64,000 nt of DNA, taken from NCBI GenBank assembly GCA_017881265.1, contig JADGRA010000003.1, forward strand, positions 1 to 64,000, read 5' to 3'. Below the pieces are notes generated by a model. It was given only the letters and a program-made list of their open reading frames with translations, was not told where the DNA came from and searched no databases. This document shows, piece after piece, positions 4,920 to 10,680 of this stretch. Positions within the stretch are counted from its first letter, which is position 1. Every line of letters begins with the position of its first letter. The DNA comes from Myxococcaceae bacterium. GTDB taxonomy: Bacteria > Myxococcota > Myxococcia > Myxococcales > Myxococcaceae. The position numbers were made by a program, and so were the translations under genes.

Positions 4920-5291
4920 CTAATCAGTGGCTGTCGCGTGTCGCTTCGGGCGCACGAGTTCTTCTGCGTCCTCCTCACTGAGCTTCTCGGTAGTCTTCTC
5001 GATCAGAATGGCCGCGAGTTGCATCGGCTCCAGGTTGGCGCCGCCGTGCTCACGAACCCTGGCAACGATCTCTTCGAGCTTCTTCAGGGTGCGGGGGGCA
5101 AGCGGCAGGAGGCGCCGCTCGGTCCAGGCGGGGTCCGTCCGCCTGCCGCCACCGGACGGGACGCGGAAGCGGCCCTCGATGTCCGTCAGGAGTTGCATAG
5201 CTCCGAAGTAGCCGCCCCCGGCGGTGACCTTCCCGCGCCGCTCCGCGCCGAGACCCTTGGCGATCTTGTCCATGTCGAGTTGTGTCTTCAT
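4920..5291 (-). CDS. Conserved-looking hypothetical protein, second gene of a two-gene module
   Basis: A 123-residue charged, soluble protein starting MKTQLDMDKIAKGLGAERRG. A Gly-rich block (GGGYFGAMQLL) is followed by an Arg/Pro segment (DPAWTERRLLPLAPRTLKK) and a helical C-terminus (EPMQLAAILIEKTTEKLSEE). The start lies three bases after the stop of the upstream frameshifted gene, so the two form an operon reading leftward from the palindrome at 5715-5732. I do not recognise the family. Small size, pairing and the upstream dyad would fit a toxin-antitoxin-like or regulatory module, but no toxin motif is visible. Confidence 0.6.
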   Translation of the reverse strand: MKTQLDMDKIAKGLGAERRGKVTAGGGYFGAMQLLTDIEGRFRVPSGGGRRTDPAWTERRLLPLAPRTLKKLEEIVARVREHGGANLEPMQLAAILIEKTTEKLSEEDAEELVRPKRHATATD

Positions 5292-5294
5292 CGT

Positions 5295-5710
5295 CTACTC
5301 CTTTCCGAAGTCGCGGATGGCGAAGTACTCGTCACCAACCACAAGGCCAATCTCTCCCTGCCGTGCCTCACGTCCCATCTTTCGGCAGAAGCTTCCAAGT
5401 TTGGCAAGGTTGGCGCCGCTCTGGATGTCGGCCGGCGTCGTGTAGCAGTGGACGACCACGGGCTCGTCCTTATAAGGGCGCCACCTCGCTCGTCGTCCCG
5501 CCAGATTCCCTTCGCCTTCGGATAGGCGGTCGCGCCGCCGAATACGCGCCCAAACATCTCCAGCGACGAGTCCACCCAACGTGGCTGGTCGATGGCGGCC
5601 ATACCGTCTCTTTCAACGCTCGGAACGAACAGAACCACGAGGACGCGTTTGCGTCCGCCGCTTAGCGCTTTCTTCCCGCCGCGGGATGGTTTCGCTCTCG
5701 TCTTGGCCAT
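5295..5710 (-). pseudogene. Frameshifted hypothetical gene, first gene of a two-gene module
   Basis: Reading starts at ATG 5710 with a Lys/Arg-rich N-terminus (MAKTRAKPSRGGKK) and a hydrophobic strand (RVLVVLFVPSV), and is sensible to about residue 77 (KGIWRDDERGG). Near 5475 the frame must shift. The continuing frame then gives KDEPVVVHCYTTPADI, LAKLGSFCRKMGREARQGEI and VVGDEYFAIRDFGKE before a stop at 5295. Without the shift, the tail becomes Ser/Arg/Thr-rich nonsense. A single-base indel, a sequencing error or programmed frameshifting would all explain this. The intact product would be about 137 residues, of unknown function. Confidence 0.6.
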
Positions 5711-5714
5711 CGAA

Positions 5715-5732
5715 ACGATCTATATAGATCGT
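5715..5732 (-). promoter_or_regulatory. 18-bp perfect palindrome operator, ACGATCTATATAGATCGT
   Basis: A perfect 18-bp dyad with an AT-rich centre lies 5-22 bases before the ATG at 5710 of the two-gene module on the minus strand. A dimeric repressor bound here would cover the ribosome-binding site or promoter. The position fits autoregulation by one of the two products, though that is inference. AT-rich symmetry this long stands out sharply in such GC-rich DNA. Confidence 0.6.
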
Positions 5733-5761
5733 GCGGGCTGGCTGTGCAACCGGGGCAAGCT

Positions 5762-5782
5762 GTGACGACAGCGCCCCATGGG
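5762..5782 (+). repeat. 21-bp direct repeat, copy A, beside GNAT gene
   Basis: This starts GTGACGACAGCGCCCCA and matches 6608-6628 at 20 of 21 positions, in direct orientation. The two copies lie 846 bases apart and enclose the GNAT acetyltransferase gene. A bulged hairpin (GGCG[G]TAACGC / GCGTTACGCC, 5807-5833) lies just inside this copy. The layout suggests a small mobile cassette or a duplication. The rest of 5733-6005 has no supported gene. Confidence 0.45.
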
Positions 5783-6005: not shown

Positions 6006-6566
6006 TCAGTCCAGTTCCTCGATGGGCTCCCTGAGCCGCGCATAGCTCCAAACGTTGGCGAGTTCTGTCGAGCCGGAATTCGGAAACGTTGCGTGGCGTG
6101 GGAGCAATCCCTCCAAGATGAAGCCGCTCTTCTCGAGCACGTGCCTAGACGCGGAATGTTCAATATGGCAAACGGCGTGAAGACGCGTCAGCGAGGGAAT
6201 CTGGAACGCGAGCGGAACGATCGACGCCAGCGCCTCGGTCGCGTAGCCGCAGCCCCAAGCATCCGTTGCAAAGACGTAGCCAACCTGAGCACACGCCCGC
6301 GACTCGAGAGCGAGGCCGCTGCCTCCCAGTAGTAGGCCTTCGATACTGAAAACCAGGTATGGGCCAGCTCCGTCAATAGACCAGGCCCGGTCACTCATTT
6401 CGAGAAAGGCCCTTGTGTCAGCAACGTTGCGATGGGTCGGCCAACTGAGGTAGCGGGTAACAGCCGGAATGCTGGCGTAGCGGCTGAAAATTGCTTCGGC
6501 GTCCCCGAGAGTCGGCCGCCGGAGCGTGAGCCGCGACGTCTCAACGCGTTCCGGAAGAAGTCCCAT
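6006..6566 (-). CDS. GNAT family N-acetyltransferase (RimJ/RimL-like)
   Basis: A 186-residue protein in the RimJ/RimL-type GNAT fold. The N-terminus VETSRLTLRRPTLGDAEAIF is the standard opening strand and helix. The acetyl-CoA-binding region reads GCGYATEALASIVPLAF, a variant of the Q/RxxGxG/A loop, and the terminal block NxxSxxVLEKSGF appears as EHSASRHVLEKSGFILEG. Length fits the family. It would acetylate an amino group of a protein or small molecule using acetyl-CoA; the target is unknown. The gene lies alone between two 21-bp direct repeats, which hints at acquisition as a unit. Confidence 0.85.
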   Translation of the reverse strand: MGLLPERVETSRLTLRRPTLGDAEAIFSRYASIPAVTRYLSWPTHRNVADTRAFLEMSDRAWSIDGAGPYLVFSIEGLLLGGSGLALESRACAQVGYVFATDAWGCGYATEALASIVPLAFQIPSLTRLHAVCHIEHSASRHVLEKSGFILEGLLPRHATFPNSGSTELANVWSYARLREPIEELD

Positions 6567-6607
6567 TCAGCGGCAGAGAGTAGCGACAGGTACTTTGACG
6601 TCAAGCG

Positions 6608-6628
6608 GTGACGACAGCGCCCCACGGG
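6608..6628 (+). repeat. 21-bp direct repeat, copy B, beside GNAT gene
   Basis: Second copy of the repeat at 5762-5782, with one mismatch (C for T near the end). It follows the 5' end of the acetyltransferase gene and precedes the toxin-antitoxin operon. Confidence 0.45.
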
Positions 6629-6733: not shown

Positions 6734-7177
6734 GTGGACACCAAGCGGAGCCTGAATCCCCGGCCAGACGAGCGAACGGTTCTGGACGCCCTGGGGGTCC
6801 GGGGCGGGCGTGGGGACCTCATTGCTGTGTTGCGCGAAGGTCTTCCCTCGTCGGCTTTTCAGCGGGCCGCAGATCGCGCTGGACTGACGCGGGAGGAGTT
6901 GATTCGTGCCTTGCGCGTCGGACGCGCGAGCATCTTTCGCCGGCTCGCGTCGAAGCAACACCTCGCCCCGGATGATTCACAGAAGCTCGTCCGCCTTACT
7001 AGAGCTTCTCTTCTCGCGGAGCACGTCCTAGGGGGTCCTGTGCAGGCCCGCGCGTGGCTGCGCGAACCGGTGCCCGCTCTTGGCGGGGAGCGGCCCGTCG
7101 ACTTGCTCGACACGGACGAGGGTGCTCGCGCCGTCGAGGAGGCACTGCTTCGGATCGAATACGGTTTCTTCGCGTGA
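6734..7177 (+). CDS. Xre/MbcA/ParS-type antitoxin
   Basis: A 147-residue protein placed directly before a RES-domain toxin. The start chosen is GTG 6734, five bases after AGAGGAGG; an in-frame ATG at 6689 lacks such a site. The N-terminal half carries a helix-turn-helix-like region (LTREELIRALRVGRASIFRRL). The C-terminal half matches the ParS/DUF2384 toxin-binding domain (HVLGGPVQARAWLREPVPALGGERPVDLL in outline, ending in a short GFFA tail). It should neutralise the RES toxin and repress the operon. The last bases overlap the toxin start (GTGA), so the two are coupled. Pairing and domain order make this call firm. Confidence 0.85.
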   Translation: MDTKRSLNPRPDERTVLDALGVRGGRGDLIAVLREGLPSSAFQRAADRAGLTREELIRALRVGRASIFRRLASKQHLAPDDSQKLVRLTRASLLAEHVLGGPVQARAWLREPVPALGGERPVDLLDTDEGARAVEEALLRIEYGFFA

Positions 7178-7701
7178 CTCGTCTCTGGCGCGTGGCTAAG
7201 CGCCGCCATCCACCCTTCACTGGAGACGGCGGGCTGTACGTCGCCGGGCGCTGGCACGAGCGTGGGGTGCGCATCGTCTACACGGCCGGGACGAAGGCGC
7301 TCAGCGTCCTCGAGTTTCTGGCGCACCTGACGCCCGGGTCGATGCCGGCCGCGGCAACCTGGTGGTGGCTCGACCTGGATGCGTCTCGAACGCCGGTCGA
7401 GACGGTCGACACGGCGAGCCTTCCTGCGCGGTGGAAGGGCGTCCGACACCTCCAGGCCACCCGCACGCTCGGGACTCGGTGGATTCGTGAAGGACGGAGC
7501 CCCGTGCTTCGCGTCCCCAGCGTCCATGTCCCTGGGGAATTCAATTACCTCGTGAATCCCCTGCACACCCTCGCCGCCCCGCTCCTCGCGAGCGCCGGAG
7601 GGCCGGAGGATTTCAGCATCGACCGACGGATCGTGGCGGCTACTTGGACGGCCGTGTCCCCCCGGCGACGTCGCCGGAAAGGAAAGCGACGAGGAGCGTG
7701 A
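7174..7701 (+). CDS. RES-domain toxin (NAD+-degrading toxin family)
   Basis: A 175-residue RES-family protein. The signature Arg-Glu-Ser type residues are visible: the opening LWRVAKRRHPPFTGDGG, then GRWHERGVRIVYTAGTKALS with a conserved Arg/Tyr, SVLEFLAHL with Glu, and the late HVPGEFNYLVNP motif. Known family members such as MbcT and the RES toxins hydrolyse or phosphorolyse NAD+, arresting growth. The start GTG 7174 overlaps the antitoxin stop by four bases. The C-terminus is Arg/Lys-rich and slightly extended. All recognisable motifs are intact, so it may be functional. Confidence 0.88.
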   Translation: MTRLWRVAKRRHPPFTGDGGLYVAGRWHERGVRIVYTAGTKALSVLEFLAHLTPGSMPAAATWWWLDLDASRTPVETVDTASLPARWKGVRHLQATRTLGTRWIREGRSPVLRVPSVHVPGEFNYLVNPLHTLAAPLLASAGGPEDFSIDRRIVAATWTAVSPRRRRRKGKRRGA

Positions 7702-7780: not shown

Positions 7781-8071
7781 ATGGAGTCGCTGAAACTCCT
7801 GAATGCCATGGCTCGCTCAGTCCGAACGATTGCTTCCGAGGCTCTCGAGCTTCCTGAAAAGGAGCGCCTTGCCCTCGCGTCTGAGCTCAGTGACAGCGCC
7901 GAAGGCGCGGACCCCGAATGGGAGGCGGAGTGGCTACGTGAGTTGGATGCGCGCGAAGCTCTTCCGCCGCCCGCCCACCGAGCTGCGGCGCTCCCCGCGG
8001 TCCGGCGGCATGCTCCGGGCGGAGTTGGAGGCCGGCGTGACGTTGCGGCTCTGCTACCGCCCGCCCTATGA
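7781..8071 (+). CDS. Addiction-module antitoxin-like N-terminus with a foreign C-terminus
   Basis: Residues 10-55 (ARSVRTIASEALELPEKERL then LASELSDS, PEWEAEWLRELDAR) match the short 'putative addiction module component' antitoxins, which are about 75 residues long. The normal C-terminus is missing. From about 7960 the reading frame enters DNA that in another frame encodes the end of an Ada-type HTH and AlkA, giving a Pro/Ala/Arg-rich tail of no sense. No ParE/RelE-type toxin follows. It is best seen as a truncated antitoxin gene joined to an alkA remnant; the alternative start is ATG 7808. Confidence 0.5.
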   Translation: MESLKLLNAMARSVRTIASEALELPEKERLALASELSDSAEGADPEWEAEWLRELDAREALPPPAHRAAALPAVRRHAPGGVGGRRDVAALLPPAL

Positions 8072-10467: not shown

Positions 10468-10680
10468 TCAGCGTGAGTCGCCGGCGACGCCGAGTTCCAC
10501 CATTCTTCGCTCCAGGGTGTTGAGGGCGACTCCGAGGTTCCGGGCGGCGCGCGTGCTGCTGCCGGGCGCCTCCGCCTCCGTCAAAAGGCGCAGCTTCTCC
10601 TCCGCAGAGTACCGACGTCGTCGCCTGGCCGGCTCAATCGCCCCGCTCGTCGGGGCCACTTCGGGGGTCTTCCTTTCCAT
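10468..10680 (-). mobile_element. Truncated IS transposase OrfA (IS3-like)
   Basis: A 70-residue remnant whose middle (RRRRRYSAEEKLRLLTEAE and LGVALNTLERRMVELG) is the helix-turn-helix DNA-binding domain of IS3-type OrfA transposases. It breaks off without the rest of OrfA or any OrfB. The bases before its ATG (10681-10745, minus strand) contain CCCCTTGAAGGACCGGAC, resembling the 38-bp repeats at 2.1 and 4.8 kb, so this appears to be the left end of an insertion sequence whose remainder was deleted. No intact partner is present in the window. Confidence 0.65.

What the first reader, a model, noticed from the sequence alone, without database searches (positions are those of the whole stretch)
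4920..5732. Two-gene module of unknown families behind an 18-bp perfect palindrome
Two small soluble genes are transcribed leftward, three bases apart, with ACGATCTATATAGATCGT covering bases -5 to -22 of the first start. A long AT-centred dyad in that position is the layout of autoregulated modules such as toxin-antitoxin operons, yet neither product has a known toxin or antitoxin motif. This is the best candidate here for an undescribed system.
Basis: partly seen in the sequence, partly recalled or inferred. Interest (0 to 1): 0.62.

Follow-up and report, generated by a model that had tools for sequence, protein, structure and literature searches.

The report
Mobile toxin-antitoxin-like pair, toxin gene broken
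The two small genes are a horizontally scattered, self-regulating gene pair: one gene looks like an enzyme that could destroy the vital metabolite S-adenosylmethionine, the other looks like the DNA-binding protein that controls it, and in this genome the presumed poison gene has been broken by a frameshift.

Summary
The palindrome and both genes are there, but the first gene (A) is frameshifted in this genome; B is intact. The module is real. 23 loci from at least five phyla carry the same promoter-operator, TTGCNT-N17-[CGATC-TATATT-GATCG], a few bases before A. It occurs once per genome. 15 of the 23 have both genes intact (dN/dS about 0.12-0.14). A and B match no Pfam, NCBIfam or PADLOC family above cut-off. 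B's C-terminal half is predicted to be ribbon-helix-helix (weak). A's predicted fold matches phage SAM lyases best (Foldseek E 9e-6, Z 10.8), and A keeps residues at the positions of the lyase's Gly, Tyr, Glu and Gln (as Gly, Trp, Asp-Glu and Gln). Where only one gene of an operator-bearing module is damaged it is always A (7 to 0), three times by internal deletion that spares the promoter and B. I read it as a toxin-antitoxin-like module: A a SAM-lyase-like toxin on a near-leaderless mRNA, B its repressor/antitoxin. Toxicity, SAM cleavage and DNA binding are untested. SAM lyase rests on fold and motif; sequence profiles do not link A to T3 SAM lyase, and exported DUF3574 proteins share the motif.

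The parts
5744..5749 (-). -35 element TTGCAC of the module promoter
   Evidence: Conserved TTGCNT at this place in 23 loci, 17 bp before the -10; the generic promoter scan alone did not reach its threshold
5715..5732 (.). 18-bp palindrome; conserved core CGATC-N6-GATCG (5716-5731), putative operator
   Evidence: conserved in 23 loci; one exact copy per genome in 16 of 19 carrier genomes, one-mismatch copy in a 17th
5721..5726 (-). -10 element TATATA (TATATT in most relatives), inside the palindrome
   Evidence: Column conservation
5459..5710 (-). Gene A, N-terminal part, start ATG at 5710 (SAM-lyase-like fold protein)
   Evidence: Profile A1 match to positions 1-83, E 3.7e-41
5459..5480 (-). 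Zone of the frameshift that breaks gene A in this genome
   Evidence: Six-frame translation and split profile match; intact copies exist in 15 other loci
5295..5471 (-). Gene A, C-terminal part in the other frame, stop codon at 5295-5297
   Evidence: Profile A1 match to positions 80-137, E 6.2e-31
5298..5302 (-). AGGAG, likely ribosome-binding site of gene B, inside the end of gene A
   Evidence: Read from sequence; kept in relatives that lost the middle of A
4920..5291 (-). Gene B, 123 aa, putative repressor/antitoxin
   Evidence: Intact ORF; 53-86% identical relatives next to A or its remnant; dN/dS median 0.14
4971..5120 (-). Part of gene B that codes for the predicted ribbon-helix-helix region (residues 58-107)
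   Evidence: AlphaFold2 helices 66-83 and 89-103; best aligned chain F-plasmid TraM DNA-binding domain, Z 4.2, 2.2 A over 50 residues

Best explanation
A compact (~0.85 kb), horizontally mobile two-gene toxin-antitoxin-like module. Shown: one conserved promoter-operator stands before A and then B; the -10 box sits between the two arms of the inverted repeat; A's start codon lies only a few bases downstream in most loci, while B has its own AGGAG. Inferred: transcription starts about at A's start codon, so A is translated leaderless and weakly and B well, keeping B in excess. Inferred: B, through its ribbon-helix-helix region, binds the inverted repeat over the -10 box, alone or with A, and shuts the promoter, and also neutralises A. 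Inferred: A is a trimeric PII/CutA-fold enzyme of the SAM-lyase type that cleaves S-adenosylmethionine (or a derivative) when B is lost. In this genome A is disabled by a frameshift, leaving a B-only remnant. My estimates: real self-regulated co-inherited pair 0.95; toxin-antitoxin-like with A as the harmful product 0.65; A acting on SAM or a SAM derivative 0.4.
For: Pair found together in unrelated genomic surroundings of Myxococcota, Acidobacteriota, Rokubacteria, Planctomycetota and Chloroflexota, mostly at 65-86% identity, yet in only 5 of 195 genomes of its own phylum. Both genes under purifying selection. Promoter-operator conserved in 23 loci, once per genome. Lesions among those 23: A and B intact 15, A broken with B intact 7 (window, L011, L017, L021 frameshifts; L066, L069, L071 internal deletions sparing promoter and B), both broken 1, B broken with A intact 0. 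Divergent pairs at about 30-55% identity (L058, L062, L124) keep the A-B order. A fold: top PDB matches are SAM lyase Svi3-3 (6zm9, Foldseek E 8.6e-6, Z 10.8; 6znb), with SAM-AMP lyase lower in the list. Motif: Svi3-3 Gly56, Tyr58, Glu69, Gln104 (PMC7877911) correspond by position in the secondary structure to A Gly68, Trp70, Asp82-Glu83, Gln118; Gly68, Trp70 and Gln118 are invariant in 17 sequences that reach down to 28% identity. B. A Xre-RES toxin-antitoxin pair lies beside this copy.
Against: No experiment. Profile comparison of A with T3-type SAM lyases is not significant (P 0.06), and none of the HMM libraries names A. DUF3574 proteins, several apparently lipoproteins, carry a similar G-x-[WY]...E...Q pattern, so the motif need not mean SAM. 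A has Trp where the lyases have Tyr, and which of Asp82/Glu83 matches the catalytic Glu is unsettled. The ribbon-helix-helix call rests on a pLDDT-70 model and Z 4.2; no HMM library calls it. Frameshifts in draft assemblies could be errors (the three internal deletions much less so). Loss of A with B kept also fits a repressor plus a dispensable enzyme. Damaged B copies exist (L013, L014, L018), but there the operator is also missing.
Confidence: 0.5

Rival explanations
1. A is a PII/CutA-like small-molecule sensor or co-repressor, not an enzyme: it senses a nucleotide-type ligand and controls B or B's DNA binding; the module is a tiny autoregulated switch with no toxin.
For: CutA and PII-like proteins fill the rest of the fold list (Z 7-8). 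The operator is single per genome, so the switch acts on itself. The motif is shared with DUF3574 proteins that look exported.
Against: SAM lyases rank clearly above CutA/PII (E 9e-6 against 4e-3). The position of the catalytic Glu is always acidic and the Gln invariant. A switch that only controls itself gives no reason for patchy spread or for repeated loss of A alone.
Confidence: 0.2
2. A phage-defence (abortive infection) unit: A is an effector that drains SAM or a SAM-based signal on infection and B is the sensor/regulator.
For: SAM-AMP lyases serve type III CRISPR defence (PMC12255297) and phage SAM lyases act against restriction; the module is patchy and mobile.
Against: No PADLOC match. 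The immediate neighbours are variable and do not look like a defence island in most loci (by eye). No copy found in the phage or plasmid collections or in viral contigs.
Confidence: 0.15
3. Reverse roles: B is the toxin and A the antitoxin/repressor.
For: The upstream gene is the antitoxin in many type II systems (general knowledge).
Against: Seven operator-bearing loci have lost A and kept B with its ribosome-binding site; the opposite was not seen. A has the enzyme-like fold and invariant polar residues; B has the DNA-binding-like one.
Confidence: 0.07
4. A real gene pair whose damage in this window and elsewhere is assembly error, so nothing can be said about which gene is harmful.
For: All carriers are draft assemblies; indel errors occur.
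Against: Three independent internal deletions in A leave promoter and B intact and are not simple indel errors; errors would hit B as often (7 to 0).
Confidence: 0.08

Closest known systems
Phage SAM lyases (Svi3-3, T3 gene 0.3 SAMase)
   Same: Predicted fold of A (Z 10.8, Foldseek E 8.6e-6) and G-x-aromatic, acidic pair, Gln at the corresponding strands and loop
   Different: No significant sequence similarity; Trp instead of Tyr; cellular, paired with a regulator gene; activity unknown
SAM-AMP lyases of CorA-type III CRISPR systems
   Same: Same PII-like fold class, Glu71 and Gln108 at equivalent places (PMC12255297)
   Different: No CRISPR or CorA gene seen near the module
DUF3574 (PF12098)
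   Same: Weak profile hit of the divergent A of L058 (E 0.0048); similar GxW/Y...E...Q pattern
   Different: Family of unknown function, often with signal peptide; not seen paired with B
PHROG 3543 (unknown function)
   Same: Weak match to A (E 5e-4 to 3e-3); FGGxT and GxY motifs
   Different: The cellular relatives read here mostly lack the Gln and follow a different small gene
Type II toxin-antitoxin modules with ribbon-helix-helix antitoxins
   Same: Two small adjacent genes, one promoter with inverted repeat over the -10, predicted ribbon-helix-helix partner, patchy spread, loss of one gene only
   Different: Enzyme-like gene first, no known toxin family, toxicity unproven
F-plasmid TraM DNA-binding domain
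   Same: Best structural match of B residues 58-107 (Z 4.2)
   Different: Only a shared small fold; different N-terminal half and context

Membership tests
Type II toxin-antitoxin system | Two adjacent small genes inherited together | tested here: met
   15 of 23 operator-bearing loci have both intact in the same order
Type II toxin-antitoxin system | Autoregulation through an operator bound by the antitoxin | tested here: inconclusive
   Operator conserved and unique per genome; binding not testable
Type II toxin-antitoxin system | One product toxic, neutralised by the other | not testable with these tools
   Only indirect: A lost with B kept 7 times, reverse 0
Type II toxin-antitoxin system | Member of a catalogued toxin or antitoxin family | tested here: not met
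   No Pfam, NCBIfam or PADLOC hit above cut-off for A or B
SAM lyase (Svi3-3/T3 type) | PII-like ferredoxin fold with short T-loop hairpin | tested here: met
   Predicted model, pLDDT 82; 6zm9 Z 10.8, 118 residues
SAM lyase (Svi3-3/T3 type) | Conserved Gly, Tyr, Glu, Gln active-site residues | tested here: inconclusive
   Gly68 and Gln118 invariant, Trp70 for Tyr, acidic pair 82-83 for Glu; no residue-level structural superposition available
SAM lyase (Svi3-3/T3 type) | Sequence homology to known SAM lyases | tested here: inconclusive
   hhalign with T3-type family P 0.06; known SAM lyase families are themselves barely similar to each other (PMC7877911)
SAM lyase (Svi3-3/T3 type) | Cleaves SAM to methylthioadenosine and homoserine lactone | not testable with these tools
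   Needs enzyme assay
Ribbon-helix-helix DNA-binding proteins | Strand-helix-helix unit that dimerises | tested here: inconclusive
   Helices 66-83, 89-103 and TraM match Z 4.2; no HMM hit
DUF3574 (PF12098) | Score over the Pfam gathering cut-off (25 bits) | tested here: not met
   17.2 bits in one divergent member only

The most novel reading that the evidence does not exclude
A new toxin-antitoxin type whose toxin is a SAM lyase: it arrests or kills the cell by destroying S-adenosylmethionine, is made from a leaderless message whose -10 box is embedded in its own operator, and is held by a ribbon-helix-helix partner. No paper found in the held library describes a SAM lyase as the toxin of a toxin-antitoxin module.
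Probability: 0.3. Interest if true: 0.85.

Novelty: new variant of a known kind. Interest (0 to 1): 0.62.

Why it matters
If A cleaves SAM, this would be, as far as the held literature shows, the first toxin-antitoxin-like module aimed at the cell's main methyl donor, and a cellular, regulated home for a fold so far known from phage anti-restriction and CRISPR signalling. It would also give a function hint for DUF3574 and PHROG 3543. Intact copies with one strictly conserved operator make it directly testable in a laboratory strain.

Tried and rejected
Scans of A and B against Pfam, NCBIfam, PADLOC, PHROGs and PDB sequences gave nothing above cut-offs except weak PHROG 3543 and DUF3574 leads. 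The PDB sequence hit to an aminoglycoside acetyltransferase (E 0.2) is a short chance match. B's Foldseek list has no significant hit. Plasmid, phage and viral-contig searches: none. Programmed frameshifting of A: rejected, most copies are in one frame and the breaks lie at different places. Palindrome as part of an N-terminal protein extension: rejected, it lies in different frames relative to A in different loci. A regulon for the operator: rejected, no second exact copy in any carrier genome. A fixed third gene: not found. The protein tree does not resolve the phyla, so transfer is argued from patchiness and identity, not topology.

Full report
Observation. The palindrome ACGATCTATATAGATCGT is at 5715-5732 and unique in the genome even with three mismatches. 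As a bare 18-bp palindrome it is not rare: two others of that length lie in the window and about 0.7 are expected from composition. Gene B (4920-5291, minus) is intact. Gene A (start 5710, minus) is broken: the N-terminal half reads in one frame, the C-terminal half ending at 5295-5297 in another, with the change near 5459-5480. The 140-aa ORF 5288-5710 is therefore half spurious.

The module elsewhere. A scan of genome contigs with the C-terminal half of A gave 17 loci from Planctomycetota, Myxococcota/Deltaproteobacteria, Rokubacteria, Acidobacteriota, Chloroflexota and one labelled Gammaproteobacteria; B sits directly behind A in nearly all. Whole-genome searches added more: 5 of 195 in the own phylum, 5 of 95 in the Rokubacteria group with E below 1e-6, 7 of 396 Acidobacteriota with clear hits, 2 of 301 in the Chloroflexota group. 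Identity between phyla is mostly 65-86%, flanks are unrelated except for one pair of near relatives, and neighbours vary. Both genes evolve under purifying selection, median dN/dS 0.12 (A) and 0.14 (B). The protein tree is unresolved between phyla; horizontal spread is inferred from patchiness and identity.

Promoter-operator. Aligning 23 loci upstream of A shows TTGCNT, 17 bp, then CG[A/G]TC-TATAT[T/G/A]-GATCG, invariant in nearly every column, and A's likely start codon mostly 1-5 bases after it. This is a sigma-70-type promoter whose -10 element lies between the arms of an inverted repeat, and it leaves at most a few bases of 5' leader (inferred). In 16 of 19 carrier genomes an exact copy exists once, at the module; a 17th has it with one mismatch; the two without it hold truncated modules. 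The element lies in different reading frames relative to A in different loci, so it is DNA, not protein, that is conserved. B has its own AGGAG inside the end of A. The perfect palindrome of this window comes from one base of the -10 box that differs from the usual TATATT.

Which gene is harmful. Of the 23 operator-bearing loci, 15 have both genes intact; 7 have A broken and B intact, including the window; one has both broken; none has B broken with A intact. L066, L069 and L071 lost the middle of A by deletion and kept the promoter and B. Loci with damaged B (L013, L014, L018) also lack the operator. This asymmetry is what is expected if A is costly and B is not; it is indirect.

What A is. 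No family library names A. The AlphaFold2 model of an intact A (pLDDT 82, pTM 0.73) matches phage SAM lyase Svi3-3 best: Foldseek E 8.6e-6, Z 10.8 over 118 residues, above CutA and PII-like proteins (E 4e-3 and weaker, Z about 8); SAM-AMP lyases are also listed. The lyases share Gly56, Tyr58, Glu69, Gln104 (Svi3-3), with Glu69 changes cutting activity more than a thousandfold (PMC7877911), and Glu71/Gln108 in SAM-AMP lyase (PMC12255297). In the T3-type phage enzymes I aligned, Gly55, Glu68 and Gln94 are invariant. In A, Gly68 and Trp70 lie on the strand before the hairpin, Asp82-Glu83 at the start of the next strand and Gln118 in the loop after the second long helix; Gly68, Trp70 and Gln118 are invariant even in the 28%-identical L058 copy. 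Sequence profiles do not connect A with T3 SAM lyases (P 0.06). DUF3574 proteins show the same pattern although several look exported, which warns against reading the motif as proof of SAM cleavage.

What B is. Residues 58-107 are predicted as a strand region plus two helices, and the best aligned solved structure is the TraM DNA-binding domain, Z 4.2, 2.2 A over 50 residues. No HMM library supports this, so ribbon-helix-helix is a fair guess, not a result.

Mechanism. Most likely B (with or without A) binds the inverted repeat over the -10 box and keeps the promoter low, A is poorly translated from a near-leaderless message while B is well translated, B neutralises A, and A, when free, destroys SAM or a derivative. 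Steps shown: gene order, promoter-operator conservation and uniqueness, lesion asymmetry, fold match. Steps inferred: binding, leaderless translation, neutralisation, toxicity, substrate. In this genome only the B remnant can be active.

Context here. The module lies next to a Xre-RES toxin-antitoxin pair. A 27-nt direct repeat (93%) at 5756-5782 and 6602-6628 brackets the acetyltransferase gene upstream of the module.

Noticed in passing
6734-7701 (+): Complete Xre-RES (ParS/MbcA-like antitoxin PF09722, RES toxin PF08808) pair next to the module.
   Followed up: partly
5756-5782 and 6602-6628: 27-nt direct repeat, 93% identical; its 17-nt core is exact only at these two places in the genome. 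It flanks a GNAT acetyltransferase gene (6006-6566 minus); possible trace of an insertion.
   Followed up: partly
7803-8071 (+): Short ORF whose sequence resembles addiction-module antitoxins to the eye; no Pfam match.
   Followed up: no
10468-10680 (-): Transposase-type HTH ORF (PF01527).
   Followed up: no
L072:1459-1692 (-): 77-aa protein matching only the C-terminal (ribbon-helix-helix-like) part of B, next to a PIN-domain gene and a small partner gene.
   Followed up: partly
L127, L128, L130, L131: PHROG 3543-like cellular proteins with FGGCT and GxY motifs, each overlapping a small basic gene upstream; perhaps another set of paired modules.
   Followed up: no
L058:1111-2073 (+): A 321-aa protein without Pfam match directly follows the divergent A-B pair; it has an RNPLVHG stretch reminiscent of HEPN-type proteins.
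   Followed up: no
L105-L116: DUF3574 proteins, several with apparent lipoprotein signals, carry GQ[YW]...E...Q[ED] at the places of the SAM-lyase active-site residues.
   Followed up: partly
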